A stretch of 39,279 bases of DNA from Solirubrobacterales bacterium (GTDB lineage: Bacteria; Actinomycetota; Thermoleophilia; Solirubrobacterales; 70-9): contig JAJTCK010000012.1 in NCBI GenBank assembly GCA_021323175.1, positions 1 to 39,279 of the forward strand, written 5' to 3'. Both the position numbers and the translations under genes were made by a program. Below, one piece after another: positions 346 through 13,479 of the stretch (position 1 is the first letter of the stretch; each line of letters opens with the position of its first letter). The notes beneath the pieces are model-generated. The model did not search any database. It had not been told where the DNA came from and saw only the letters and a list, made by a program, of their open reading frames with translations.

Positions 346-351
346 GATACT
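346..351 (+). promoter_or_regulatory. -10 box GATACT, leaderless start
   Basis: GATACT lies 8 nt before the ATG at 360, which puts the likely transcription start on or next to the start codon. There is no Shine-Dalgarno sequence between them. The surrounding bases are nearly the same as those before the genes starting at 2676 and 3296. Confidence 0.55.
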
Positions 352-359
352 GCGTGGCG

Positions 360-770
360 ATGTCGCAGGAGAACGTGGAGATCGTTCGACGTGGGTACCA
401 GCTGTTCCAGGCCGGCGATCTCGAGGGTGTGGCTGCGCTGTTCTCTCCGGGTATCGAACTCCCAGACGCCGGGGGGCTTGGAATCGGGGACACAGTTCCG
501 GGCACTCGCACCGGACCAGAAGGGTTTCTGCGTACCACCGAGGAGACGCGGGATGCGTTCGAGGACTTTCGAGTTGAGCCCGAGGACTTCATCGACGCCG
601 GTGAGGTTGTCGTAGTGCCAGTTCGTATCTCTGGCCGAGGAAGGGTGAGCGGAGTGGAGCAAGAGGCCCGCCTCGCGCACGTATGGACTCTCCGCAACGG
701 CAAGGCGATCCGCAACGAGATCTACCGGACCGTCGAGGAAGCCCTCGAAGCCGCCGGGCTGCGCGAGTAG
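360..770 (+). CDS. SnoaL-like / NTF2-fold protein
   Basis: A 136-residue protein of the SnoaL-like NTF2 fold. It opens with MSQENVEIVRRGYQLFQAGD, the typical first helix, followed by a hydrophobic pocket pattern and a closing strand, HVWTLRNGKAIRNEIY. Members are small pocket proteins, some isomerases or hydrolases and many of unknown role; no substrate can be assigned. I chose the ATG at 360 over 333 because the family begins MSQENVE and a -10 box sits 8 nt upstream. It is a paralogue of the genes at 2874-3296 and 7079-7501; with the former it shares the C-terminus ALEAAGLRE. It is probably cytoplasmic, with no signal peptide. Confidence 0.85.
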   Translation: MSQENVEIVRRGYQLFQAGDLEGVAALFSPGIELPDAGGLGIGDTVPGTRTGPEGFLRTTEETRDAFEDFRVEPEDFIDAGEVVVVPVRISGRGRVSGVEQEARLAHVWTLRNGKAIRNEIYRTVEEALEAAGLRE

Positions 771-2013: not shown

Positions 2014-2087
2014 GGTGGGCGTAGCTCAGTTGGTAGAGCTCCTGGTTGTGGTCCAGGCGGTCGCCGGTTCGAGTCCGGTCGCTCACC
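2014..2087 (+). tRNA. tRNA-His (GTG)
   Basis: Acceptor GTGGGCG pairs with CGCTCAC, including one G-T pair. D-stem GCTC/GAGC, anticodon stem CCTGG/CCAGG with loop TTGTGGT (anticodon GTG), T-arm GCCGG/CCGGT. The extra G at 2014 opposite discriminator C2087 is the histidine identity pair. CCA is not encoded. Its 3' end is duplicated at 4176-4191, marking it as an integration site. Confidence 0.95.
2069..2084 (+). repeat. att-like site within the tRNA-His 3' end
   Basis: TCGAGTCCGGTCGCTC, from the T-loop into the acceptor strand, recurs exactly at 4176-4191. The following bases also resemble each other (ACCCCTCACGAAGCC versus GCCTTCACGGAACC). This is the expected trace of a tyrosine-recombinase element inserted at a tRNA 3' end. 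Confidence 0.6.
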
Positions 2088-2223
2088 CCTCACGAAGCCT
2101 CTGCTAACGCGGAATTTCGTGCTCATTGGCCTCAGGGAGCGGTGGACGTCGGGCATCAATCTGACATCGTTCCGACCGAGGACGAGAGGACAGAAGGCAC
2201 AGGGCATCAGCTCCCGGAGACGC

Positions 2224-2676
2224 TCAGTCGTCCTCGTCTCTCGAGTCATCTCGCTTCGCGAATCGTTCTGGACCGACGAGAGCGAGGTAGAGGAGGAGCA
2301 GCCCAAGCGAAACCAGCGCGAGATAGACATACAGGTGCGCTGCCCAGTTCGTCTTGTCCCTAGCGATCGTCATGAGTGCACCGGTCTCCCCTCCGAAGAC
2401 CACGACCGCGAGCAGCACGGTCCGGTAGCGCCGCGCAAACGTCAGCTTCGTGGACAGCTCCAGCAGGCGTCCTTGGATCGCTACGGCGACCAACAGTGTT
2501 GGAATGACCGTCGCGGCGGAGCGGTAGAAGTCCATGTTCGTCTTCGGACCTTCGTCGAGACTCGTGCCAATCGCGTAGATGGCCCCGAGCGCGACGGTCG
2601 CGGCGTAGTCGAGAGGATTCAGCGAACCGGCCGCCTCGCGAACTCGGCCGATCTTGCTTCCGATCTCCTGCGACAT
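2224..2676 (-). CDS. four-helix membrane protein, unknown function
   Basis: A 150-residue protein with about four hydrophobic segments: one in LDYAATVALGAIYAIGTSL, one in AATVIPTLLVAVAIQG, one in YRTVLLAVVVFGG and one in HLYVYLALVSLGLLLLYLAL. The tail is charged (KRDDSRDEDD). I recognise no family. The start at 2676 (MSQEIGSK) is preferred to 2718 because the bases before it and its first codons repeat those of the two nearby SnoaL-like genes, including GATACT 10 nt upstream. It lies inside the tRNA-His element interval. Confidence 0.65.
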   Translation of the reverse strand: MSQEIGSKIGRVREAAGSLNPLDYAATVALGAIYAIGTSLDEGPKTNMDFYRSAATVIPTLLVAVAIQGRLLELSTKLTFARRYRTVLLAVVVFGGETGALMTIARDKTNWAAHLYVYLALVSLGLLLLYLALVGPERFAKRDDSRDEDD

Positions 2677-2686
2677 CTGCCTGCGT

Positions 2687-2692
2687 AGTATC
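2687..2692 (-). promoter_or_regulatory. -10 box GATACT, leaderless start
   Basis: On the minus strand GATACT is followed by ACGCAGGCAG and then ATG, a 10-nt gap. CGCGGGATACT matches the leader of the SnoaL-like gene at 3296. The rest of 2677-2873 shows no gene. Confidence 0.5.
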
Positions 2693-2873
2693 CCGCGACA
2701 TCGAGGGGCGCATCGCAAGCCCCGGCCCGACGCCGGAGGTGGAGTGGGAACCTACGAGCGTCGAGCCGAGGCGAAGCCAGAGGCTAAGTCGTTGGGGGAG
2801 GGTCGTCGGTGAGGGGGGCACACCGCAACACCGCCGGTTGAGTAGCGGCGCTTGCCGTGAAGCCGTGACCCGC

Positions 2874-3296
2874 CTACTCCCGCAGCCCGGCGGCTTCGAG
2901 GGCTTGCGATCGATCCCGATACGCATCCAGCGACGTGGCGCGACCGTCGTGAATAGTCCAGACGTGCGTGACCTCGACCTCGATCGGCACGCCGCTGGCC
3001 CCGCCCTCGGCAAGGATGCGTGCGAACACGACCACGCGGTCACCGGCCTCGAGAAACCGCTCCGGCTCAAATCGCCATTTGCCCCAGGTGTCAGCGAGCA
3101 TCGCGATCATCTCAGCGAAGCCCTCTCGCCCGCGAAACACCGGCTCGCCCTCGGGATAGTCGGATGGCAGCCGAATCTCAAGCTGACCGTCGACGTAATC
3201 GCGGAAGGCCCGGTCGATCTGATCGGGAGGAACGCTGAACGGGTCGGCTCCGATCTCGTACAGGGTGCGGACCAACTCCACGTTCTCCTCAGACAT
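2874..3296 (-). CDS. SnoaL-like / NTF2-fold protein
   Basis: A 140-residue SnoaL-like protein starting MSEENVELVRTLYEIGADPF, with FRGREGFAEMIAMLADTW in the centre and VTHVWTIHDGRATSLDAY as the closing strand. The ending ALEAAGLRE is identical to that of the gene at 360-770, so the two are paralogues. The substrate cannot be read from the sequence. The start is ATG 3296, 10 nt after GATACT and without a Shine-Dalgarno, so probably leaderless. No signal peptide. It lies on the opposite strand from the element remnant genes that follow. Confidence 0.85.
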   Translation of the reverse strand: MSEENVELVRTLYEIGADPFSVPPDQIDRAFRDYVDGQLEIRLPSDYPEGEPVFRGREGFAEMIAMLADTWGKWRFEPERFLEAGDRVVVFARILAEGGASGVPIEVEVTHVWTIHDGRATSLDAYRDRSQALEAAGLRE

Positions 3297-3306
3297 CGCC
3301 CTACGC

Positions 3307-3312
3307 AGTATC
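3307..3312 (-). promoter_or_regulatory. -10 box GATACT, leaderless start
   Basis: The minus-strand reading is CGCGGGATACTGCGTAGG, then GCG, then ATG. The same segment, with small changes, precedes the genes at 360 and 2676. Confidence 0.55.
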
Positions 3313-3408
3313 CCGCGGGGAGATGTTGCTGACGGCCGATGCTGGGACGATTACGCGCCGCCGCCGATCCGCAAGCCCGCGACAGCGAAGGGCCCGCTGC
3401 AAACACAA

Positions 3409-3516
3409 CTGGCCCTACAGTCGATCCTGTGCGCCTCAGTCTCGGGTGCCTCGTCGCGTCAGTCGCGTATCGGCGTATCACTCCGCTGGGGCCAGAATTG
3501 TTGGCCGTAGGGCCAG
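3409..3516. repeat. spaced inverted repeat, 10-bp arms
   Basis: CTGGCCCTAC at 3409-3418 is the exact reverse complement of GTAGGGCCAG at 3507-3516. The 88-nt spacer has no gene. It sits in the 250-nt gap between the SnoaL-like gene and the excisionase-like fragment, where I see nothing else. It may be an old element boundary or recombinase site; function unknown. Confidence 0.35.
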
Positions 3517-3546
3517 CCAGAGACAGCCTACTCCTCTGGCAGCCAG

Positions 3547-3681
3547 ATGCCCCGCGAGTCCGACTTCGAAGACGCCTGGAAGCGAATCCCGCACCTGCGC
3601 TTCGGCCGCACCTACCGCTTCAGAGCCGAGGCGATCGAGCGCTGGCTCGAGGAGGAGGAGCGAGGCAATGGGAGCAGCTAA
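3547..3681 (+). pseudogene. excisionase-type HTH fragment
   Basis: A 44-residue frame ending at TAA 3679-3681. The part IPHLRFGRTYRFRAEAIERW followed by LEEEE is the usual end of a MerR/excisionase-type winged helix-turn-helix domain. The front, which should carry the first helices of such a domain, is missing or unrecognisable, so I call it a truncated remnant. Its place upstream of an integrase remnant fits an xis-int order. Confidence 0.5.
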
Positions 3682-3773
3682 CGTGGCCTCCGGCCCGCGG
3701 CCACCGGGGCGGTCCTCCAGCTTCCCCCGGCCGTGCGCTTTCCCGTTCTTCGCTCGTGGCGTAGAACTGGGCC

Positions 3774-3836
3774 ATGGACGACCGTCCCACGAAAGGGAAG
3801 CCGATGAAGAAGTCCTCGGACAAAGGCGCCGCGTGA
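3774..3836 (+). CDS. possible 20-residue leader ORF
   Basis: A very short Lys-rich frame, MDDRPTKGKPMKKSSDKGAA, whose TGA shares bases with the next ATG (TGATG). TAGAACT a few bases before its ATG could be a -10 box. It may only serve coupled translation, and it could be chance. Confidence 0.25.
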   Translation: MDDRPTKGKPMKKSSDKGAA

Positions 3837-4036
3837 TGGCTGATGAACGCGAGAGGGCCAGAGCAGGCTTCCAGCAGTCGCTTACGGTTTTCGCGGGCCT
3901 CCGCGATCAGATGCACAAGAACGGACCAAAAGCCGTGGTCGACGCCCTCGCCGCGATGCCCGAGGGCGACCTGCGGCAACTTCTGTTCGCGCTGGTCGTA
4001 ACGGCGGCACACGCCGAGGATGGGGAGCAGAGGTGA
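3836..4036 (+). CDS. small hypothetical protein of the element remnant
   Basis: A 66-residue frame starting MADERERARAGFQQ, with an amphipathic middle (VVDALAAMPEGDLRQLLFAL) and a charged end. It is linked on both sides by TGATG stop-start overlaps, to the micro-ORF before and the integrase remnant after. That suggests a former three-gene transcript. I recognise no family. A much longer reading of the same frame starting upstream is not credible, because its front has the composition of a chance frame. Confidence 0.45.
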   Translation: MADERERARAGFQQSLTVFAGLRDQMHKNGPKAVVDALAAMPEGDLRQLLFALVVTAAHAEDGEQR

Positions 4037-4191
4037 TGGCACGCCATAGCTATGGCACCGGCTCCCCTGTTCAAACGAGGCGAGGGGTGGGTCGGTCAAT
4101 GGCGAGCCGACGGTCGGGTAGTCAAGCGCGTCCTCGGCCCGGCGCGGCCCCGCGGCACCCGCCGAGGACGGACGCTCGAGTCCGGTCGCTC
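4036..4191 (+). pseudogene. tyrosine recombinase (integrase) N-terminal remnant
   Basis: The first codons read MARHSYGTGS. After one extra C in the run at about 4066-4069, the frame continues LFKRGEGWVGQWRADGRVVK and on through LGPARPRGTRRG. This matches the start of actinobacterial site-specific recombinases with an AP2-like arm-binding domain. The resemblance ends where the 16-bp tRNA-His copy begins, and no core-binding or catalytic domain (R..HxxR..Y) follows. The gene is thus both frameshifted and truncated and cannot be active. Confidence 0.6.
4176..4191 (+). repeat. att-like copy of the tRNA-His 3' end
   Basis: An exact 16-base copy of 2069-2084. It covers part of the T-arm and acceptor strand but no other tRNA part, as expected for the distal attachment site of an integrated element. 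From here to the cupin gene at 4380 there is only an unconvincing frame. Confidence 0.6.
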
Positions 4192-4366
4192 GCCTTCACG
4201 GAACCCCCCGACAGACGCGGGAGCTTCGCCGTTCCAATGGGTGGATCCGCTCAAAGCGGAGGTACTAGCGGTGGTACGAGCGCGGACCGCTGCTCTGCAT
4301 GAAAGCGGACTTGCCACCCCGGGGCGCTGACACATCAGGTCGGGGGCTGCAGCCAGGTAGCCACCG

Positions 4367-4372
4367 TAGGAT
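4367..4372 (+). promoter_or_regulatory. -10 box TAGGAT, leaderless start
   Basis: TAGGAT is followed by 7 nt and the GTG start at 4380. It helps choose this start over the in-frame ATG at 4299. Confidence 0.5.
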
Positions 4373-4379
4373 TGCGGCT

Positions 4380-4781
4380 GTGCCGTTCACGCTCAGGAAC
4401 CTCAAGGAGGACCTGCCGGACGTCGGGTCCAACTTCGACGGGGCGCCGGACCTGGAGTTCCGCCTGGCGACCGAGGCGCTCGAACTCGAGCAATCCGGTC
4501 TGGGCTACCAGCGCGTCCCACCCGGCTATCGCTTCCCGTACGGCCACACGCACAAGAAGCAGGAGGAGGCGTACGTGGTCGTGCGCGGAAGCGGGCGCAT
4601 GAAGCTCGACGACGAGATCGTCGAGCTCAAGGAGTGGGACGTGGTGCGGGTCCCGCCCGGTACGTGGCGAGGCTACGAGGCAGGACCGGAGGGCCTCGAA
4701 ATCCTCGTCATCGGCGCGCCCAATCTCGGCGAGGCTCCGCGTGAAGACGTCGAGGGCGAGCGCGACTGGTGGGCTGACTAA
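4380..4781 (+). CDS. cupin domain protein
   Basis: A 133-residue single-domain cupin. The first cupin motif is in PYGHTHKKQEEAYVVVRGSG, giving two His and a Glu for metal binding; the second is around VVRVPPGTWRGYEAG, where the usual His is replaced. Cupins include dioxygenases, isomerases and sensors, and this one cannot be assigned a substrate. Start GTG 4380 gives MPFTLRNLKEDLPDVG, a sensible N-terminus, and has a -10 box 7 nt upstream. It is cytoplasmic and appears monocistronic. Confidence 0.8.
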   Translation: MPFTLRNLKEDLPDVGSNFDGAPDLEFRLATEALELEQSGLGYQRVPPGYRFPYGHTHKKQEEAYVVVRGSGRMKLDDEIVELKEWDVVRVPPGTWRGYEAGPEGLEILVIGAPNLGEAPREDVEGERDWWAD

Positions 4782-4915
4782 GTCGATCAAGTGAGGGTCG
4801 GCAGGCCTTGTGGAAGATCGCCGGGGCAGACCGACCGGCCCCAGAAGGTTTCGCGGCTCCCATCGCTGGCAAGCCTCATTCCTCAAGCCCCCGAACGGCA
4901 TGAAACGAGGTGAGC

Positions 4916-5305
4916 ATGAGCAGGAAGGCTGTGATCACGATCAACCGCCCCCGCGCGGAGGTGGAACAGTTCTGGCGCTCCCAGGAGTACCGGCCGGACT
5001 ACATCGCAGAGACCGAGGCGGCGGTCAGTTTCGTGGACGCCCCCGGGGACCGCGGAACCGAGGTCCACGTGACGGTCGAGAGCGTCCCGCCCGGCGGCAA
5101 GCTCGGCGAGATGGCCAAGAAGCTGACCGGGTCCGAGCCGCTGGCCAAGACGAAGGACGCGCTGCGTCGCTTCAAGCAGATGGTCGAGACCGGCGAGATC
5201 CCGCGTTCTGACGCAAGTCCCGAGGGCGAGAGCCTCGAGCGCAAGCTGAAGCAGCGCCCGGCTCAGCCGCTCGAGCAATCCGAGATCGAAAAGGCAGGTG
5301 TCTGA
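4916..5305 (+). CDS. SRPBCC-like protein
   Basis: A 129-residue protein resembling SRPBCC/START-fold proteins: early strand AVITINRPRAEVEQFWRSQE and a central VHVTVESVPPGGKLGEMAKK. The C-terminal third is charged and probably extended. Start ATG 4916 follows GAGGTGA at good spacing; the in-frame GTG at 4910 is less well placed. Its TGA overlaps the dehydrogenase ATG (TGATG at 5303-5307), so the two are translationally coupled. Ligand unknown. Confidence 0.65.
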   Translation: MSRKAVITINRPRAEVEQFWRSQEYRPDYIAETEAAVSFVDAPGDRGTEVHVTVESVPPGGKLGEMAKKLTGSEPLAKTKDALRRFKQMVETGEIPRSDASPEGESLERKLKQRPAQPLEQSEIEKAGV

Positions 5306-6483
5306 TGCGCGCCAACGTCTGGTCGGGACGCAACACGGTTCAGGTCGAGAACGTCCCCGACCCCAAGATCCTGAATGACCGCGACGCGATCGTGAAGATC
5401 ACGTCCACCGCGATCTGCGGCTCAGACCTGCACCTGTACGACGGGTACGTCCCCACGATGAAGCGCGGGGACATCCTCGGCCACGAGTTCATGGGGGAGG
5501 TAGTGGAGACCGGAAGCGGTGTCGAGAACCTGTCGGTTGGCGATCGCGTAGTCGTGCCGTTCCCGATTGCATGCGGAAATTGCTGGTCGTGTCAGCACGA
5601 GCTGTACTCGGCCTGCGAGAACTCGAACCCGAACGCGGGCATCGCCGAGAAGATGTTCGGACATCCCACGGCCGGGATCTTCGGCTACTCGCACATCACC
5701 GGCGGATATGCCGGCGGACAGGCGGAGTACGCACGAGTTCCGTACGCCGACGTCGGACCGATCAAGATCGAGGACGACCTGAGCGACGAACAGGTTCTGT
5801 TCCTGTCCGACATATTCCCGACCGGGTACTTCGGAGCGGACCTCTGCGACATCGAGGGCGGTGAGGTGATCGCCGTCTTCGGCGCCGGGCCGGTGGGGCA
5901 GTTCGCCATCGCAAGTGCGGTGCTGATGGGAGCCGAGCGGGTCGTCGCGATCGACAAGTTCGACTATCGGCTGCAGATGGCGCTCAACAAGGCCGGGGCT
6001 ACAGACGCGATCAATTTCGACGATGACCCCGACATCGTCGAGCAGCTCAAGGAGCTGACCGGTGGCCGTGGGCCGGATGCGGTGATCGACGCCGTCGGAC
6101 TCGAGGCGACGCACGGACACGCGGTGTTGCATGCCGCCGAGCGGATCAAGCAGGCGACCAGGTCCGAATCGGAACGCGGTCATGCCCTGCGCGACGCGAT
6201 CCTGGCGTGCCGCCCAGGCGGCATCGTTTCGGTGATCGGCGTATACGGCGGCCTGCTCGACAAGTTCCCTGCGGGGGCATTCATGAACAAGGGCCTCCAG
6301 CTGAGGACGGGACAGGCGCATGTCCAGAAGTACCTCCGACCCCTGTATGAGCGGATCCGAGACGGCGAAATCGATCCCAGCTTCGTGGTCACCCATCGCA
6401 TGGAGCTGGGGATGGCGCCGGAAGGCTTCGAGACCTTCAAGCACAAGCAGGACGAGTGCGTGAAGGTCGTCCTCAAGCCCTGA
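5305..6483 (+). CDS. zinc-dependent alcohol dehydrogenase, formaldehyde dehydrogenase-like
   Basis: A 392-residue medium-chain dehydrogenase that oxidises an alcohol or aldehyde with NAD(P). The catalytic zinc ligands sit in TAICGSDLHLYDG and ILGHEFMGEV. The structural zinc site is the four-Cys cluster CGNCWSCQHELYSAC. The Rossmann fold is AVFGAGPVGQFAIASAVLMG. The length and the insert after the cofactor domain fit the group annotated as glutathione-independent or glutathione-dependent formaldehyde dehydrogenases; the substrate is not proven by sequence. It is the middle gene of a three-gene operon with an SRPBCC-like gene upstream and a membrane protein 11 nt downstream. Confidence 0.9.
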   Translation: MRANVWSGRNTVQVENVPDPKILNDRDAIVKITSTAICGSDLHLYDGYVPTMKRGDILGHEFMGEVVETGSGVENLSVGDRVVVPFPIACGNCWSCQHELYSACENSNPNAGIAEKMFGHPTAGIFGYSHITGGYAGGQAEYARVPYADVGPIKIEDDLSDEQVLFLSDIFPTGYFGADLCDIEGGEVIAVFGAGPVGQFAIASAVLMGAERVVAIDKFDYRLQMALNKAGATDAINFDDDPDIVEQLKELTGGRGPDAVIDAVGLEATHGHAVLHAAERIKQATRSESERGHALRDAILACRPGGIVSVIGVYGGLLDKFPAGAFMNKGLQLRTGQAHVQKYLRPLYERIRDGEIDPSFVVTHRMELGMAPEGFETFKHKQDECVKVVLKP

Positions 6484-6494
6484 AAGGAGCGTAG

Positions 6495-6974
6495 ATGCCA
6501 TTCCCACGACCAATCGACTCGACCCTCCACGGCGCGACCGATTACTCGGTTGGGACGACCCTGATGACGGTCTTTCCGACACTCGCCGGCATCGAGGGGA
6601 CCCCCGCGGCTCGTCAGATCAGGACGGCCGGCGTGAGCCACGCCGGCTACAGCCTCTTCACCGACTACCCGCTCGGGGTCGTGAAGGCCCTTCCATACAA
6701 GGCGCATCTCGCCATCGATGCGATCGGCGCGGTGGCGCTGGCGGCGACGCCGTTCGTGACGGGCCAATACAGGCGGGGCAGGAGCCAGTGGCTCCCGCAT
6801 GTCGCGCTTGCCCTGTTCGAGCTCGGCTCGCTCGCGATGAGCGATCCGACGGGCAGGGGCGACTACCACGGCAACGTGGAGTCGGTCCGCCGGGCCAACG
6901 AGCTCGACCCACACGCGCGAATCCACCAGGGCAAGCCCGCGGTGTCGCGGGGCCGGGACCGGGTGACTGCCTAA
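6495..6974 (+). CDS. hypothetical membrane-associated protein
   Basis: A 159-residue protein with hydrophobic stretches around YSVGTTLMTVFPTLAGI, HLAIDAIGAVALAATPFV and LPHVALALFELGSLAM. A motif GYSLFTDYPLGVVKALPYKA lies in the middle, and the C-terminus is soluble and basic. It starts at ATG 6495 after AAAGGAG. It is the last gene of the operon with the dehydrogenase and is followed by a strong hairpin. The family is not recognised by name; the role is unknown. Confidence 0.7.
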   Translation: MPFPRPIDSTLHGATDYSVGTTLMTVFPTLAGIEGTPAARQIRTAGVSHAGYSLFTDYPLGVVKALPYKAHLAIDAIGAVALAATPFVTGQYRRGRSQWLPHVALALFELGSLAMSDPTGRGDYHGNVESVRRANELDPHARIHQGKPAVSRGRDRVTA

Positions 6975-6984
6975 AACGGAACGG

Positions 6985-7010
6985 GCGGGCCGGCGAACGT
7001 GCCGGCCCGC
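6985..7010 (+). terminator. hairpin terminator after the dehydrogenase operon
   Basis: GCGGGCCGGC and GCCGGCCCGC form a perfect 10-bp stem with a 6-nt loop, 10 nt after the stop codon. Only a short T-run (GTTTC) follows, so termination may be partly factor-dependent. Confidence 0.65.
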
Positions 7011-7020
7011 ACCAAGTTTC

Positions 7021-7044
7021 CCCCGCCGCGGCCTGGCGGCGGGG
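7021..7044. terminator. second hairpin in the same gap
   Basis: CCCCGCCGC pairs perfectly with GCGGCGGGG around a 6-nt loop. It lies between the first hairpin and the SnoaL-like gene. It may reinforce termination or simply reflect GC-rich sequence. Confidence 0.35.
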
Positions 7045-7065
7045 CGGGGCGGCGGCGGGTGGCGA

Positions 7066-7071
7066 AATACT
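7066..7071 (+). promoter_or_regulatory. -10 box AATACT, leaderless start
   Basis: AATACT, then TCTGGGG, then ATG 7079: a 7-nt gap. It resembles the ATACT leaders of the other two SnoaL-like genes. Confidence 0.5.
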
Positions 7072-7078
7072 TCTGGGG

Positions 7079-7501
7079 ATGTCCGAGAGCGACGTGGACG
7101 TGGTGCTGGACCAGTTCGAGGCCGTCAACAAGCGCGACTTCGACCGCGCGATGAGTCACTACGCGGACGACGTCGAGCTGCTGGTGGACGACGAGGCGTT
7201 CCTCGATTCGGGGACGTTCAGGGGAAAGGAGGCCGTCGGCCGCTTTTTCGGCAATTGGTTCTCGACCTTCGAGCCCGGATACCGCTTCGAGATCGAGGAG
7301 GCCCGGGACTTGGGGGGCGTCGTCCTGCTCGTGGCGAGCCACCACGGCCGGGGGCGCAACAGCGGCGCCGAGGTCCATGGGCGGACGGGATACCTCTACA
7401 AACTGCGCGACGAAAGAATCGTGCGCGCCGAGCTGTATCCCGACCGCGCCGCGGCCCTCGACGCCGCCGGTGCGAACGACGCCGAGTCCCGGACGGACTA
7501 G
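7079..7501 (+). CDS. SnoaL-like / NTF2-fold protein
   Basis: A 140-residue SnoaL-like protein, MSESDVDVVLDQFEAVNKRD, with ADDVELLVDDEAFLDSGTFR in the first half and GYLYKLRDERIVRAELY as the last strand. It ends in a short charged tail. It is a third and more diverged paralogue in this window. ATG 7079 is chosen because the family N-terminus and the -10 box both point to it; the same frame is open far upstream in non-family sequence. Its stop TAG and the stop of the opposing SRPBCC gene share the palindrome CTAG at 7498-7501. Ligand unknown. Confidence 0.8.
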   Translation: MSESDVDVVLDQFEAVNKRDFDRAMSHYADDVELLVDDEAFLDSGTFRGKEAVGRFFGNWFSTFEPGYRFEIEEARDLGGVVLLVASHHGRGRNSGAEVHGRTGYLYKLRDERIVRAELYPDRAAALDAAGANDAESRTD

Positions 7502-7977
7502 CGCAGCGAGGTCGCGACTTCCTCCAGCAGGTCCATCGCGTCCTGCATCCCAGCCTCCATGCCCGACTCGATGTGTCCGTCCCGCCCCTCCTTGTTGCGG
7601 TGCTCCACCAGGACGGTGAGAGTGGTCCTGCCTTCCTGCTCGGTGAGCGTCAGCGTGTTCAGGGACTCGGCGTCCGGCATGCCCTCGAACACCTCGGTCG
7701 AGACGATCCTCTCGCCGGGGACGATCTCGCGGTACTCACCGTGGAAGCCAACTTCCTGCCCGCCGTCGGCGATCATCACGTAGCGCCAACCGCCACCGAC
7801 CCGCAGGTCCACCTCGGCGACGGTGACCTCACCGCGCTTCGCGTTCCACCAGCGCTTGATCAGCTCCGGGGTCGTCCAGGCCCGCCACACCAGGTCCTTC
7901 GGCGCGTCGAACTCCCTCGTGATCAGGATCTGCGTGTCGGTGGGGAGGGTGACCACCGCGGTGCCGCTACTCGTCAT
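7498..7977 (-). CDS. SRPBCC / AHSA1-type protein
   Basis: About 159 residues of the AHSA1-like SRPBCC fold: REFDAPKDLVWRAWTTPELI, then KRWW, then VDLRVGGGWRYVMI and the C-terminal helix MEAGMQDAMDLLEEVA. These are small cytoplasmic hydrophobic-ligand proteins, often paired with an ArsR regulator, as here. I prefer ATG 7977, since AAGGAG lies 9 nt before it. The other ATG at 7986 directly abuts the AAGGAG. The front overlaps the end of the ArsR gene, so the two are coupled. Confidence 0.85.
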   Translation of the reverse strand: MTSSGTAVVTLPTDTQILITREFDAPKDLVWRAWTTPELIKRWWNAKRGEVTVAEVDLRVGGGWRYVMIADGGQEVGFHGEYREIVPGERIVSTEVFEGMPDAESLNTLTLTEQEGRTTLTVLVEHRNKEGRDGHIESGMEAGMQDAMDLLEEVATSLR

Positions 7978-8323
7978 CGAACTCATCTCCTTGTTCCTTT
8001 CCTTTCAGATCTTCCAGTACGTCCTCGAGCGCCTCGAAGCGCTCCTCCCACGACCGCTCGTAGCCCTTCAGCCAGTCGTGGATGTCCTTGAGCGGATGGC
8101 CGTTCAGCCGGTACAGGCGCCTGCGGCCGTCCTCGCGCACCTCGACGAGCCCCACCTCCCGCAGCACCCTGAGGTGCTTCGAGACCTGCGGCTGGGCGAG
8201 GCCCAGAGCCTTGACCAGGTCGTTGACCGGACGCTCCCCGTCCGTGAGGACGTCGAGGATCTGCCGCCGCCGCGGCTCGGCGACGGCGTTGAACGCGTCG
8301 GTCGTGGTCGCTGCTCGTGCCAT
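7967..8323 (-). CDS. ArsR-family transcriptional regulator
   Basis: A 118-residue winged helix-turn-helix repressor. It starts MARAATTTDAFNAVAEPRRR, and the recognition helix lies in LGLAQPQVSKHLRVLREVGL, followed by the wing VEVREDGRRRLYRL. The C-terminal extension DWLKGYERSWEERFEALEDV is typical of the group that pairs with AHSA1-type SRPBCC genes. No metal-binding Cys motif is present. It probably represses its own promoter and the downstream SRPBCC gene. The inducer is unknown. Confidence 0.9.
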   Translation of the reverse strand: MARAATTTDAFNAVAEPRRRQILDVLTDGERPVNDLVKALGLAQPQVSKHLRVLREVGLVEVREDGRRRLYRLNGHPLKDIHDWLKGYERSWEERFEALEDVLEDLKGKEQGDEFDDE

Positions 8324-8330
8324 GGCGGTG

Positions 8331-8360
8331 ACTATACATATCTATATAGGAATATGTCAA
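8331..8360 (-). promoter_or_regulatory. promoter and operator of the ArsR-SRPBCC pair
   Basis: On the minus strand TTGACA (8360-8355) and TATAGT (8336-8331) are 18 nt apart, the best promoter in the window. The start ATG follows 7 nt later, so the mRNA is probably leaderless. Between the boxes lies ACATAT-N10-ATATGT (8336-8357) around a central CTATATAG. This dyad is well placed for repression by the ArsR protein itself. Confidence 0.65.
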
Positions 8361-8728
8361 GGGACAATGAGGACGGCTTCCACAGGCCGTGGCAACAGGC
8401 TTCGGCGAGAAGAGCGGTGGCCCTAGCGGCGCCCGGCCGTGGGCTCTACGTCCTGAAGCGCCTAATCGGGCGAGCTGGACCGCACCGCGAAGGGCGGCAA
8501 GACCTACAGGCTCCGATCGACGTGTTTTCTCGATCTCTTCGTCGAGGTTGACGCGGCCGCCATCTGGGCCGAACCGAGCTGCCGAGCGGGGCGTCGGGGA
8601 CCATCACGGTCTCCTTCAAGAATTCCCTGGGACACGACGACGACTACACGGTGCCGATCGGCGCCGGGGGGCCGAGACATCTCCCTGCCGATCGACGGGC
8701 GCGTCCCTCCGGGGGCCGCAGTAGAAGC
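8361..8728. other. gene-poor interval, possible decayed reading frame
   Basis: No intact gene is seen. On the plus strand around 8565-8670 one frame reads TELPSGASGTITVSFKNSLG followed by HDDDYTVPIGAGG. It looks protein-like, as from an exported or structural protein, and then another frame gives DISLPIDGRVPPGAAVEAV. This may be a broken gene end; I do not recognise it. Confidence 0.25.
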
Positions 8729-8761
8729 GGTCCGGCCGGGGCGTGCAGCCCCGGCCGGACC
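8729..8761 (-). terminator. hairpin terminator after the sigma factor gene
   Basis: GGTCCGGCCGGGGC and GCCCCGGCCGGACC form a perfect 14-bp stem with a 5-nt loop, 9 nt beyond the sigma gene stop. No T-run follows on the minus strand. It is symmetric and could act on both strands. Confidence 0.6.
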
Positions 8762-8770
8762 GATCAGAAC

Positions 8771-9715
8771 CTAGGCTGCGTCGCGCCAGGCGGCCAGGGC
8801 GCCGTCGGCGGAGAGGCGCGCCAGCGCGCGCTCCTCGAGCCGGCGGGCCTGCTCCTGGGTTACGCCGACCTCTCGGGCCGCGTCGCGCAGGGGCCGCTCC
8901 GGCGTGCCGCCGGTCCCGAACCGGGCGCGGATGATCTTTCGCTCCTGCTCGGGCAGCCGCTCGAGCGCGGCGTCCACGGCCTGCTCCTGCTCGCGCTCCA
9001 AAACCTCCTCCTCGAGCTCGGCCGTGCTCTCGGCGTTGAGCTCACCGAAGGTGGTGTCGCCGTCCCCGACCGGCTGGTCGAGGCTGGTGGTCACCCTGGT
9101 CAGGTCGCGGGTCGCCATGACCTCGTCCAGAGGCAGCTTCGCCTCCTTCGCCACCTCCTCGTCGGTGGGCTCGCGGTCCAGCTTGGTCGTCAGCTCCGCC
9201 GTGATCCGGTTCACTGTGCGCTCGCGCTGGGCGATGTGCGCCGGGATCCGGACCGCGCGTCCGCTGTTGTCCAGGCCGCGCTGAATCGACTGCTTGATCC
9301 AGAGAACCGCGTAGGTCGAGAACTTGTATCCACGGCGCCAATCGAACTTCTCGGCGGCGCGGATCAGACCCAGCATCGCCTCTTGGACGATGTCCCCGAG
9401 GTCCAGTCCGTGGCCCTGGTAGCGGCGCGCGAACTTGATGACGAGCCGCAGGTTGGAGTTGATCAGCTTCTCCTTGGCGGCCAGGTCGCCCTTCTCGATG
9501 CGCTTGGCCAGCTCGATCTCCTCGGGTCCGGTGAGGAGGGGGTACTTCATCGCGGAGTTGATGAACAGCTGCAGGCTGTCCGTGGTCGCCTCGGCGCGCG
9601 CGTGATCGCGCGAGCGGCGCTCGTCGGCGGCGGTGCGGTTGGTCTTGTTGTCGTGCTCGCCGCGCTTGCGGCGGGTGTCGCTGCGGGTAGCCGCAGCTCC
9701 TCTGCTGCGAGGCAT
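8771..9715 (-). CDS. RNA polymerase sigma-70 family factor (group 2-like)
   Basis: A 314-residue sigma factor that directs RNA polymerase to promoters. After a basic, low-complexity N-terminus of about 45 residues comes region 1.2 (SLQLFINSAMKYPLLTGPEE). Region 2 includes LINSNLRLVIKFARRYQGHG, DIVQEAMLGLIRAAEKFDWR and KFSTYAVLWIKQSI. Region 3 and a region 4 helix-turn-helix (EVGVTQEQARRLEERALARL) follow. There is no region 1.1. Region 4 departs from the usual VTRERVRQIE pattern, so -35 recognition may differ from that of the main factor. A stationary-phase or stress role is inference. AAAGGGG precedes the ATG. Confidence 0.92.
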   Translation of the reverse strand: MPRSRGAAATRSDTRRKRGEHDNKTNRTAADERRSRDHARAEATTDSLQLFINSAMKYPLLTGPEEIELAKRIEKGDLAAKEKLINSNLRLVIKFARRYQGHGLDLGDIVQEAMLGLIRAAEKFDWRRGYKFSTYAVLWIKQSIQRGLDNSGRAVRIPAHIAQRERTVNRITAELTTKLDREPTDEEVAKEAKLPLDEVMATRDLTRVTTSLDQPVGDGDTTFGELNAESTAELEEEVLEREQEQAVDAALERLPEQERKIIRARFGTGGTPERPLRDAAREVGVTQEQARRLEERALARLSADGALAAWRDAA

Positions 9716-9754
9716 TCGGTGCCCCTTTCGAGTCGTGTCACTTCCCTGCCGAGA

Positions 9755-9774
9755 CTCCCGCGGGCGAGCGGGAG
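9755..9774. other. hairpin in the 5' leader of the sigma factor mRNA
   Basis: CTCCCGC and GCGGGAG form a 7-bp stem with a 6-nt loop inside the roughly 70-nt leader predicted from the promoter at 9791-9818. It could affect mRNA stability or ribosome access; no known regulator class is recognised. Confidence 0.35.
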
Positions 9775-9790
9775 GCCCAACACTTCAGAA

Positions 9791-9818
9791 AGTATAGCGC
9801 GGAACTAGGAATTTGCAA
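9791..9818 (-). promoter_or_regulatory. promoter of the sigma factor gene
   Basis: On the minus strand TTGCAA (9818-9813) and TATACT (9796-9791) are separated by 16 nt. This is one of few genes here with both boxes and a leader carrying a Shine-Dalgarno sequence. Confidence 0.65.
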
Positions 9819-9828
9819 GCGGAACCTC

Positions 9829-9866
9829 AAATGGCTTTCGCAAGCCATTTTCATACCACATTATGA
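9829..9866. promoter_or_regulatory. two adjacent AT-rich dyads between the sigma gene and corA
   Basis: AAATGGCTT-TCGC-AAGCCATTT (9829-9850) is a perfect 9-bp stem, and TCATA-N6-TATGA (9851-9866) follows at once. They lie upstream of the sigma promoter and about 100 nt before corA, in an unusually AT-rich patch. They could be binding sites for one or two regulators or form a cruciform. The rest of the 255-nt gap shows no gene. Confidence 0.4.
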
Positions 9867-9970
9867 AGGGTTCTTAACGAAAGGGCGACCGGCCCGCCGC
9901 GTGGGCCTCGCCCGCTTCGCAGGAGGCAGGAAGCCCGGGCCGCAGGCGGAACAAGCAGCCGGAGCCATTC

Positions 9971-10948
9971 GTGATCGTCGACTGCGCGCACTACAAAGCC
10001 GGCGCCCGCCAGCACGAGGGGCCGCTGGATCTGGACCGGGCCGCCGAACGCGCCGGGGACGGCGAGGGCGAGTTCGTCTGGATCGGCCTGCACGAGCCCG
10101 ACCTGGGCACGCTGCAGCGCGTGCAGGGCATGTTCGACCTGCATGAGCTGGCCATCGAGGACGCCGCGCGAAGGCATCAGCGGCCCAAGATCGAGGACTA
10201 CGACGAGTCCTGGTTCATCGTGCTGCGCACGGCCCATTATCACGAGGACCGCGAGACGGTCGAATTCGGCGAGATCCACGTCTTCGCCGGCTCCGGCTAC
10301 GTGATCACCGTCAGGCACGGGCCGGGCAGCGAGCTGGCGACGGCGCGCAGGAGGCTGGAGGCCCGCCCCGAGCTGCTGGGCATGGGGGCCGCGGCCGCCG
10401 TCTGGGCGATCCTCGACAAGGTCGTCGACGACTACGCCCCCGTTGTCGACGGGATCGAGGACGACATCGAGGAGGTCGAGACCGACGTCTTCGACGACGA
10501 TTCGCCGGCTCCCACCTCGCGGATCTACCACCTGAAGCGTGAGGTGATCGAGTTCCACCGGGCTCTCTACCCGCTGCTCGGCCCCCTGGAGGCGCTCGAG
10601 CGAGGCGCCTACCCCCAGATACCGGAGGAGCTGCGCCGATACTTCCGAGACGTCAGCGACCACGCTAGACGGGCGGACGAGCTGGTCACCTCGCAGCGCG
10701 AGCTGCTGACCAGCGTGCTCGAGGCGAACCTGTCACTGGTCAGCGTCCATCAGGCCGAGGTCGTCAAGAAGATCTCCAGCGTGGCCGGGATCATCGCGGT
10801 CCCCACCTTCATCGCGAGCGTGTACGGCATGAACTTCGAGTACATGCCGGAGCTTGACGAGCGCTGGGGGTATCCGCTCGCGCTCGGGGCGATGGCGCTG
10901 TGCGTCGCGGGACTGATCGCCTTCTTCCGCAGGATCGACTGGCTCTAA
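9971..10948 (+). CDS. corA: CorA-family magnesium transporter
   Basis: A 325-residue inner-membrane divalent cation channel of the CorA family, expected to work as a pentamer. The long cytoplasmic N-terminal domain is acidic and includes the stalk helix region. Two C-terminal membrane helices follow: the first around VAGIIAVPTFIASVYGMNFE, ending in the YGMNF selectivity motif, the second LALGAMALCVAGLIAFF. A short basic tail, RRIDWL, ends the protein. The loop MPEL is typical. The start is GTG 9971 after GGAG. It is divergent from the sigma factor gene. Cobalt or zinc may also be substrates in this family. Confidence 0.93.
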   Translation: MIVDCAHYKAGARQHEGPLDLDRAAERAGDGEGEFVWIGLHEPDLGTLQRVQGMFDLHELAIEDAARRHQRPKIEDYDESWFIVLRTAHYHEDRETVEFGEIHVFAGSGYVITVRHGPGSELATARRRLEARPELLGMGAAAAVWAILDKVVDDYAPVVDGIEDDIEEVETDVFDDDSPAPTSRIYHLKREVIEFHRALYPLLGPLEALERGAYPQIPEELRRYFRDVSDHARRADELVTSQRELLTSVLEANLSLVSVHQAEVVKKISSVAGIIAVPTFIASVYGMNFEYMPELDERWGYPLALGAMALCVAGLIAFFRRIDWL

Positions 10949-11021
10949 GGGGTTTAGGAGGCAGCCCGTACCTGAAACGCAGGCGCGCCCACGGCTCGGG
11001 CTGACGAGCACGGCCCCTCGG

Positions 11022-11027
11022 TAGCCT
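11022..11027 (+). promoter_or_regulatory. -10 box TAGCCT, leaderless start
   Basis: TAGCCT lies 8 nt before ATG 11036, with no Shine-Dalgarno between. Confidence 0.4.
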
Positions 11028-11035
11028 CAGCCCCG

Positions 11036-11932
11036 ATGACGCCTGTGATCGGGCATGTCGGCGGCGGGACGCTCGAGCCGCTCCAGCTTGTGGGCATCAC
11101 CGTGGCAGCGGCGGCTTACGGGTTCCGCGCGCAGACGCTGTCGGCCCAGGGCAGGGGAGTACCAGCCTGGCGGGTGGCCTGCTTCGCCGCGGGGATCCTG
11201 CTGATCGCGGCCGGCCTGGTCACTCCGCTCGCGCACATGGGCGAGGAGCTGCTGCTCGCGCACATGGCCCAGCACCTGCTGGTCGCCGACATCGCTGCGG
11301 GTCTGATCGTCCTGGGGCTGACCGGGCCGCTCCTGCAGCCGCTGCTGGCGCTCAGGGCCATCGACCGCCTGCGGGTGCTGACGCACCCGCTGGTGGCGCT
11401 GCCCCTCTGGGCGCTGAACCTCTACATCTGGCATCTGCCGGCGCTCTACCAGTCCGCCCTCTCGAACGAGGCCGTCCACGCCCTCCAGCACGCCTGCTTC
11501 ATCGGCTTCGGGATCCTGATGTGGATGCCGCTCTTCGGCCCTCTGCCGAAGCCGTCGTGGTTCGGGATCGGCGCGAAGATCGGCTACGTGGTCGGGGTGC
11601 GCTTCGCGGGCACGGTGCTCGGGAACGTCTTCATGTGGGCCAACACGGTCTTCTATCCCGACTACGCCGCAGGGGAGGCTGAGTTCGGGATCTCCCCGCT
11701 GTCCGACCAGGGGACCGCTGGGGTGATCATGACCGCCGAGGGTGGGCTGGTCACGCTGGGGGTGCTGGCATGGCTATTCCTGCTCTGGGCCCAGCAGGAC
11801 ACCGAGCGCCAGCGCCTGGTCGAGCTGGCCCAGGAGCGCGGCGTCGAGCTGAGCGACGCGCGGGCACGACGCGCGGTTGCCGCGGGGCAGGGCGCTCGCC
11901 TGGAACAGCGGCTGCGACAGGGACGCGCGTGA
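11036..11932 (+). CDS. ctaG: cytochrome c oxidase assembly protein, caa3-type CtaG
   Basis: A 298-residue polytopic membrane protein of the caa3-type CtaG family, which helps assemble the copper-containing oxidase. About six or seven hydrophobic helices are seen, with family landmarks LAHMAQHLLVADIAAGLIVL, LNLYIWHLPALYQSAL and LQHACFIGFGILMWMPLFG. His and Met residues in these helices could handle copper. The C-terminal 50 residues are charged and cytoplasmic. Its TGA lies within the GTG start of the next gene (GTGA), so the two are coupled. Confidence 0.88.
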   Translation: MTPVIGHVGGGTLEPLQLVGITVAAAAYGFRAQTLSAQGRGVPAWRVACFAAGILLIAAGLVTPLAHMGEELLLAHMAQHLLVADIAAGLIVLGLTGPLLQPLLALRAIDRLRVLTHPLVALPLWALNLYIWHLPALYQSALSNEAVHALQHACFIGFGILMWMPLFGPLPKPSWFGIGAKIGYVVGVRFAGTVLGNVFMWANTVFYPDYAAGEAEFGISPLSDQGTAGVIMTAEGGLVTLGVLAWLFLLWAQQDTERQRLVELAQERGVELSDARARRAVAAGQGARLEQRLRQGRA

Positions 11933-13479
11933 CCGCGACGGAGGTGCCCGAAAGGGCGTCGCACCGATCGGAGCTCGCGCAGGAAGGGGTCAGCAACACC
12001 TTTCTCTACGTCCTGGTGTTCGTGGTCGGCACCGCGAGCCTGGGCGCGGAGATCGCGGCCGCCAGGCTGATGGCGCCCTTCTTCGGTGCCTCGACGATCG
12101 TGTGGGCCAACACGATCGGGGTCGTCCTCGTGTCCCTCTCAATCGGCTACTGGCTCGGGGGCCGGCTCGGAGACCGCTACCCCCGCGTCCGGAACCTCTG
12201 CCTGGTGGTGGCGGCGGCCGCGGCCTTGATCGCGGTCGTCCCATTCGCGGCGCGGCCGTTCTTCGAGGTGGCAACCGACGCCCTGGACGAGATCTCAGCG
12301 GGCGCGTTCGTCGGCTCCCTTGTCGGAGTCCTGTTCCTGATCGCGGTCCCGGTCGTCCTGCTCGGGACCTGCTCCCCCTGGGCGATCCGGCTGGCCGTCC
12401 CAGACGTGGAGCACTCCGGCCGTACCGCGGGACGCCTCTACGCGGTCTCCACCGTCGGCTCGCTGCTGGGCACGATGCTCGCAGCGCTGGTGCTGATTCC
12501 CTTCATCGGCACCCAAAGGACCTTCCTTGCATTCGCCATCGCCCTGGGGCTGGTCGCCGCAGCGGGTCTCGGCTGGCGCTACCTGGCAGTGCCCGCCGCC
12601 CTGGCCGCGGCGCTGGCGATCCCGATCGGAACCGTGAAGGCCACCGAGGGCGAGCGAGTCCTGTTCGAAGGCGAGAGCGAGGAGCAGTACATCCGTGTGG
12701 TCGAGGACGAGGACGACGGCGACCGCAAACTCGAGCTGAACGAGGGACAGGCCGTCCACTCGCTCTACCGGCGGGGCAGCTATCTGACCGACGACGTCTG
12801 GGACGGCTACCTCGTCGCGCCCTTCGCGGTTCGCTCCGAGCCTCCGGAGAGGATCGCGATCCTGGGGAATGCGGCGGGGACGACGGCGCGTGCGTACGGC
12901 CACTACTTCCCGCAGACCGAGGTGGACGGGGTCGAGATCGACGCCAAGCTGAGCGAGCTGGGGGAGGAGTACTTCGACATGGAGAACCCGAAGCTCGAGG
13001 TCTTTCACGAGGATGCCCGTCCCTGGCTCGAGCGCTCCGACGGCGACTACGACGTGATCATGGTGGACGCGTACCGCCAGCCCTACATCCCCTTCTACCT
13101 GGCCACCAAGGAGTTCTTCGAGCTGGTCCGCGACCGCCTGGCCCCCGGCGGGGCCGTAGTGGTGAACGCAGGACACCCGGAGGGCAACGACGACCTGGAG
13201 AAGGTGCTGGGCGCGACCATGGCCGAGGTCTTCCCGACGGTCCTGCGGGATCCGATCGAGGACACCAACACCCTGCTGATCGGCAGCGAATTTCCAGGCT
13301 CGGCGCAGAAGCTCGCCGAGGCGGTCCCCGGCCTGGCTCCTGATCTGCGTGTCATCGCGGCGAGAGAGTCGGCGAAGGTCGAGGACTACCTGCGCGGGGG
13401 CGAGGTCTACACCGACGACGTCGCGCCGGTGGAGTGGCTGATCGACCGCTCGATCCTGGGCTACGCGTCCGAGGACTGA
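11929..13479 (+). CDS. fused membrane / spermidine-synthase-like protein
   Basis: About 516 residues. The N-terminal half is a membrane region of about six or more helices, from FLYVLVFVVGTASLGAEIAA to LAVPAALAAALAIPIG. The C-terminal half is a Rossmann methyltransferase-like spermidine synthase domain. Its nucleotide loop is AILGNAAGTTARAYGHYFP, the acidic residue is in VDGVEIDAKLSELG, and VMVDAYRQPYIPFYLATKEF follows. The loop lacks part of the usual GGG, and the true substrate of these fused proteins is generally unknown, so polyamine synthesis should not be assumed. GTG 11929 overlaps the ctaG stop; a long upstream reading of the frame is inside ctaG and rejected. Confidence 0.8.
   Translation: MTATEVPERASHRSELAQEGVSNTFLYVLVFVVGTASLGAEIAAARLMAPFFGASTIVWANTIGVVLVSLSIGYWLGGRLGDRYPRVRNLCLVVAAAAALIAVVPFAARPFFEVATDALDEISAGAFVGSLVGVLFLIAVPVVLLGTCSPWAIRLAVPDVEHSGRTAGRLYAVSTVGSLLGTMLAALVLIPFIGTQRTFLAFAIALGLVAAAGLGWRYLAVPAALAAALAIPIGTVKATEGERVLFEGESEEQYIRVVEDEDDGDRKLELNEGQAVHSLYRRGSYLTDDVWDGYLVAPFAVRSEPPERIAILGNAAGTTARAYGHYFPQTEVDGVEIDAKLSELGEEYFDMENPKLEVFHEDARPWLERSDGDYDVIMVDAYRQPYIPFYLATKEFFELVRDRLAPGGAVVVNAGHPEGNDDLEKVLGATMAEVFPTVLRDPIEDTNTLLIGSEFPGSAQKLAEAVPGLAPDLRVIAARESAKVEDYLRGGEVYTDDVAPVEWLIDRSILGYASED

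What the first reader, a model, noticed from the sequence alone, without database searches (positions are those of the whole stretch)
2069..4191. Scar of a tRNA-His-integrated element
A 16-bp exact copy of the tRNA-His T-arm/acceptor region sits 2.1 kb downstream (4176-4191), just where an integrase N-terminus loses its similarity to the family. Upstream of that are an excisionase-like HTH end and two small frames with TGATG overlaps. The integrase has one extra C and no catalytic domain. This is best read as an element that inserted at tRNA-His and was then mostly deleted, leaving two minus-strand genes that may be cargo.
Basis: partly seen in the sequence, partly recalled or inferred. Interest (0 to 1): 0.65.

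Follow-up and report, generated by a model that had tools for sequence, protein, structure and literature searches.

The report
Decayed mobile element at tRNA-His
A small mobile DNA element once inserted at the tRNA-His gene of this actinobacterium and was then crippled by a deletion that removed most of its integrase, leaving a 2.1-kb scar with two passenger genes; this is an ordinary kind of event, seen clearly here because intact cousins could be compared.

Summary
The 16-bp copy of the tRNA-His 3' end (2069-2084 = 4176-4191) is real, unique in the genome, and lies where the integrase fragment loses homology. Related integrases in the same order are about 376-435 aa and often have a HTH_17/excisionase gene upstream. 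In four loci the integrase stop codon lies close to a partial copy of a tRNA 3' half. In genome G015 the whole layout is intact: tRNA-Met, cargo, xis, int, then a 42-bp exact copy of the tRNA-Met 3' half. The same-genus genome G001 carries a 44-bp tRNA-His copy (anticodon loop to 3' end), the likely original core length. One ~1.1-kb deletion from integrase codon ~48 into attR explains both the lost catalytic domain and the short copy (inferred). tRNA-His is an insertion hot spot in these relatives. The mechanism is standard, so this is a dead member of a known kind. No clean empty site was found. Two side observations may be worth more: SnoaL-like genes whose ends are conserved at DNA level while interiors diverge, and a ~112-nt palindromic element at 3407-3518 without an Rfam match.

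The parts
2015..2089 (+). tRNA-His(GTG), the insertion target; its 3' half is attL
   Evidence: ARAGORN, Rfam tRNA
2045..2088 (+). inferred attL core, anticodon loop to 3' end (44 bp)
   Evidence: exactly this stretch is found as an isolated copy in the same-genus genome G001; an analogous 42-bp core in G015
2224..2676 (-). passenger gene: 150-aa membrane-like protein (hydrophobic stretches by eye); leader GATACTACGCAGGCAGATG
   Evidence: one homolog in 232 genomes, in a stretch with tRNA-Arg and an adjacent integrase
2874..3296 (-). passenger gene: SnoaL-like protein with the conserved head and tail of its family
   Evidence: Pfam SnoaL_2 1e-12
3407..3518 (+). 112-nt palindromic non-coding block, related copies in 21 of 232 genomes
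   Evidence: no Rfam match
3547..3681 (+). C-terminal half of an excisionase-like HTH gene
   Evidence: HTH_17 5e-5, TIGR01764 5e-6, 62% identity to the xis of the G015 element
3774..3836 (+). 20-aa frame, TGATG overlap with the next; may not be a gene
   Evidence: sequence
3836..4036 (+). 66-aa orphan frame, TGATG overlap with the integrase
   Evidence: no homolog in 231 other genomes of the order
4036..4175 (+). integrase N-terminal remnant (about 48 codons) with one extra C in 4064-4067
4176..4191 (+). attR remnant: last third of the tRNA-His core
4192..4231 (+). terminator-like stretch, probably the displaced native downstream sequence of tRNA-His
   Evidence: similarity to the stretch after tRNA-His in the window and in G012; weak

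Best explanation
A small integrative element of the tRNA-targeting, tyrosine-recombinase kind recombined into the 3' half of tRNA-His. This kept the tRNA gene whole (attL) and left a copy of its 3' half at the far end (attR), just behind the integrase gene. Later a deletion of about 1.1 kb, from integrase codon ~48 into attR, removed most of the integrase and the first ~30 bp of the attR core. A frameshift and loss of the first half of the excisionase gene add to the decay. The element can no longer excise by itself and is fixed with two passenger genes. Shown: the repeats, the gene fragments, intact analogues, reuse of tRNA-His. Inferred: the single deletion, its size, and the order of decay events.
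For: Exact unique repeat. Similarity to the integrase family ends at the first base of the copy. Intact G015 element with the same order and a 42-bp repeat. Three more loci (G065, G131, G045) with the integrase stop close to a tRNA-3' copy (read by eye). 44-bp tRNA-His copy in the same-genus genome. Copies of the tRNA-His 3' half downstream of tRNA-His in several relatives, and integrases directly after tRNA-His in G023 and G043. No other genome searched holds the interval. The membrane protein's only homolog lies beside another tRNA-linked integrase.
Against: No clean empty site and no intact version of this very element was found. GC content of the interval (65.5%) does not differ from its neighbours (66.5-67%). 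The repeat is only 16 bp. The accessory stretch extends to ~8767, so other events happened here too.
Confidence: 0.87

Rival explanations
1. Layered insertions: the integrase fragment and the attR remnant belong to different elements that used tRNA-His at different times, and the two minus-strand genes came with yet another.
For: The site is reused by unrelated elements in relatives, and the accessory stretch goes on to ~8767.
Against: The order xis, int, attR and the position of the break are what a single element with one deletion gives.
Confidence: 0.08
2. The 16-bp copy is a chance or generic tRNA-arm match and the integrase fragment is an unrelated remnant.
For: Part of the 16-mer (TTCGAGTCC) is common to many tRNAs; tRNA-Asp has it with one mismatch.
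Against: The exact match is unique in the genome, includes the His acceptor stem, continues weakly beyond, and sits at the integrase break.
Confidence: 0.03
3. Assembly artefact: the contig joins two unrelated pieces at the short repeat.
For: The genome is a fragmented draft (169 contigs); reads were not available.
Against: A 16-bp repeat is shorter than usual assembly word sizes (general knowledge). The integrase C-terminal pieces elsewhere in the genome are only 28-36% identical to the G015 integrase and show no tRNA-His copy.
Confidence: 0.02

Closest known systems
tRNA-targeted integrative elements / genomic islands with a tyrosine recombinase (known kind; Actinobacterial ICEs are surveyed in PMC3218068, listed but not read)
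   Same: insertion in a tRNA 3' half, attL/attR direct repeats, xis and int next to one end, cargo between
   Different: here decayed: integrase, excisionase and attR are all truncated; no transfer or replication genes seen
The intact element at tRNA-Met in G015:C210 (L058 7721-12668)
   Same: order tRNA, cargo, xis, int, tRNA-3' copy; xis 62% and integrase N-terminus 53% identical
   Different: target is tRNA-Met; cargo is an M78-peptidase/HTH gene, a DUF4411 gene and a gene with a weak MobC-family match; no small frames between xis and int
Integrase of G160:C1:1094482 (closest full-length relative found)
   Same: 63% identity over the 46 aa held in the window
   Different: full length, continuing GLTRVQAERRL where the window breaks off; no tRNA beside it in the stretch read

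Membership tests
tRNA-targeted integrative element (scar) | direct repeat of the tRNA 3' end at the far boundary, same strand | tested here: met
   16 bp exact, unique in the genome
tRNA-targeted integrative element (scar) | intact tRNA gene at the near boundary | tested here: met
tRNA-targeted integrative element (scar) | integrase gene next to one boundary | tested here: met
   N-terminal fragment ending at attR
tRNA-targeted integrative element (scar) | empty site in close relatives | tested here: inconclusive
   G001 has the right-hand neighbours (from 8768) but its contig ends before any tRNA-His; no clean junction
Functional tyrosine recombinase (Phage_integrase) | catalytic domain with R-H-R-Y residues | tested here: not met
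   only the first ~48 positions are present; no Pfam match for either frame
Excisionase (HTH_17 / TIGR01764) | complete HTH domain above the curated cut-off | tested here: not met
   second half only, 23.9 against 27 bits and 26.8 against 28.8 bits
Actinobacterial ICE (AICE) | replication initiator and FtsK-like transfer gene | tested here: not met
   none among the proteins scanned between 2090 and 4175; they could have been lost

The most novel reading that the evidence does not exclude
The SnoaL-like passenger (2874-3296), and in part the membrane-protein gene beside it, which carries the same GATACT..CG..ATG leader and first codons, belong to a cassette-like class of genes whose short DNA ends are kept nearly identical while the interiors diverge. 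Such genes may spread, duplicate in tandem and swap contents by recombination at these ends, with integrative elements as carriers.
Probability: 0.12. Interest if true: 0.6.

Novelty: new member of a known kind. Interest (0 to 1): 0.22.

Why it matters
It is a clean example of how a tRNA-seated element becomes fixed: one deletion can remove the integrase and most of attR while the tRNA and the cargo survive. It also shows that tRNA-His, with several other tRNAs, is a reused insertion site in this order of mostly uncultured actinobacteria (probably Solirubrobacterales), so that scars of this form can be sought elsewhere. Beyond that it is ordinary.

Tried and rejected
Empty site in 40 relatives and in G001: no clean allele. 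Intact copy of this element by its 66-aa frame (232 genomes) and by its integrase N-terminus (399 genomes of the class): only cousins at about 40-64% identity. GC deviation as an island signal: none. Copy derived from tRNA-Asp instead of tRNA-His: aligns worse. Missing integrase C-terminus elsewhere in the genome: the matches on C45, C38 and C167 are only 28-36% identical to the G015 integrase. A GGGCATNAATC motif seen after tRNA-His in the window, G003 and G043 and before the G001 copy was considered as possible integrase arm sites; too few cases. attR of the G087 island: not found on its 43.7-kb contig. Literature searches gave nothing specific to this order.

Full report
OBSERVATION. The window is one whole contig (C129) of a 2.3-Mb, 169-contig draft genome. 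The only named relative found with the trigger factor is a Solirubrobacterales MAG at 47% identity, so the order is probably Solirubrobacterales. tRNA-His lies at 2015-2089. The 16-mer TCGAGTCCGGTCGCTC is at 2069-2084 and 4176-4191 and nowhere else in the genome; one 1-mismatch hit is the T-arm of tRNA-Asp, which aligns worse to the copy than tRNA-His does. Similarity of the two sites runs on weakly to 2113/4221. The stretch after tRNA-His in the relative G012 is a strong terminator-like hairpin; the stretches after both sites in the window resemble degraded versions of it.

GENES. Between the two sites lie a 150-aa membrane-like protein (2224-2676, minus; hydrophobic stretches seen by eye), a SnoaL-like protein (2874-3296, minus; Pfam 1e-12), a palindromic non-coding block (3407-3518), the C-terminal half of a HTH_17/excisionase-like gene (3547-3681), two small frames (3774-3836 and 3836-4036) with TGATG overlaps, and an integrase N-terminus (from 4036) with one extra C in 4064-4067. 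The HTH matches are slightly below the curated Pfam and NCBIfam cut-offs, as expected for half a domain.

INTEGRASE FAMILY. The N-terminal motif occurs in 28 of 151 genomes of the order and 39 of 399 of the class, the window's own included. Nineteen full-length members give 376-435 aa from the motif on. A profile built from them matches the window only at positions 13-48, plus the first residues in the other frame. Similarity stops at GRTL, at the first bases of the tRNA copy.

INTACT COUSINS. In G015:C210 (L058): tRNA-Met 7721-7795; an M78-peptidase/HTH gene and a DUF4411 gene; a gene with a weak MobC-family match; xis 11112-11330; int 11331-12620; then a 42-bp exact copy of the tRNA-Met 3' half at 12627-12668. 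In G065, G131 and G045 the integrase stop codon also lies close to a sequence that reads, by eye, as a tRNA 3' half. So xis-int-attR, with the integrase reading into attR, is a recurrent layout of this family. It is not universal: in other members the integrase lies next to an intact tRNA, and the closest relative, in G160, has no tRNA beside it in the stretch read. The window has the xis-int-attR layout minus about 350 integrase codons. The full core is probably ~44 bp, because the same-genus genome G001 has exactly tRNA-His 2045-2088 as an isolated copy. The window's copy is the last third of that core. One deletion from integrase codon ~48 into the core explains both losses (inference).

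HOT SPOT. Copies of part of the tRNA-His 3' half lie downstream of tRNA-His in G027 and G039 (40-55 bp away), G013 (1.1 kb, weak), G005 (3 kb), G034 (7.7 kb) and G023 (11 kb). In G023 and G043 an integrase follows tRNA-His directly. The distance from tRNA-His to the conserved ctaG-like gene is 3.0 kb in G009, 4.9 in G016, 8.9 in the window, 11.3 in G002, 12.5 in G005 and 25.7 in G012. G001 matches the window from 8768 to 12000 at 79-83% but before that only in tRNA genes and short low-identity stretches. Hence the accessory stretch is longer than the scar, and a clean empty site could not be shown.

CARGO. The membrane protein has one homolog among 231 other genomes (26-28% identity). It lies in a stretch of G087 where a tyrosine integrase directly follows tRNA-Arg. 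There its frame overlaps the 3' end of a gene matching BilD; genes matching BilA and BilC precede it, and genes that look like type I restriction-modification follow (by eye). This supports 'cargo' and hints at a link with defence, no more. The 66-aa frame is an orphan.

SNOAL FAMILY (side result). The leader GATACTNCGN(2-8)ATG occurs 13 times in this genome, 2 in G001, 50 in G012 and 13 in G005, against 0-2 for the reversed pattern. Most of the genes behind it begin like MSQENVE and many end in EAAGL(R/S)E. In 14 of 40 collected genes the next ATG follows within 6 nt of the stop, so they sit in tandem. In 27 genes selected by protein ends, the tail codons are nearly always GAA GCC GCC GGG CTG: GAA in 24 of 25 against 19% of interior Glu codons, GGG in 23 of 27 against 28% of interior Gly codons, while mean interior residue identity is 26%. 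The genes are related, so the binomial values (9e-17, 7e-10) overstate the case. One copy has a different frame between leader and tail (L167), one is only 31 aa (L174), and on C167 a copy abuts an integrase C-terminal remnant. The tail also holds GGAG, a possible ribosome-binding site for the next gene, which is a plain alternative for part of the conservation.

VERDICT. Observation confirmed; interpretation supported and refined. It is a known kind of event and of low interest in itself.

Noticed in passing
window 346-770, 2674-2692, 2874-3312; G000:C167 (L144), C113, C10; G012 and G005: Family of SnoaL-like genes, often in tandem, whose 5' leader/first codons and last ~8 codons are nearly identical in DNA while interiors are ~26% identical in protein; copy number varies widely (2 to 50 leaders per genome).
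   Followed up: partly
window 3407-3518: 112-nt palindromic non-coding block with flanking conservation (CAAACGAA before, AGCYTACTCC after); 26 matches in 21 of 232 genomes, no Rfam match. It scores on both strands, so a MITE-like DNA repeat is as likely as an RNA.
   Followed up: partly
G000:C167, L144 about 2590-2870: C-terminal remnant of a tyrosine integrase directly abutting the stop codon of a SnoaL-like gene.
   Followed up: no
L124 6361-11129 (G087:C14): Stretch beginning with tRNA-Arg and an integrase, with BilA-, BilC- and BilD-like genes and, overlapping the BilD-like frame, a homolog of the window's membrane protein; no BilB seen.
   Followed up: partly
window 4192-8767: Cupin, SRPBCC-like, zinc-type alcohol dehydrogenase and SnoaL-like genes with no DNA-level counterpart in the same-genus genome except a 68% stretch of the SnoaL-like gene; the accessory region is longer than the scar.
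   Followed up: partly
L050 4712-4822 (G000:C115): tRNA-Ala(CGC) whose downstream terminator stretch is very like the one after tRNA-His (82% over 105 bp including the tRNA).
   Followed up: no
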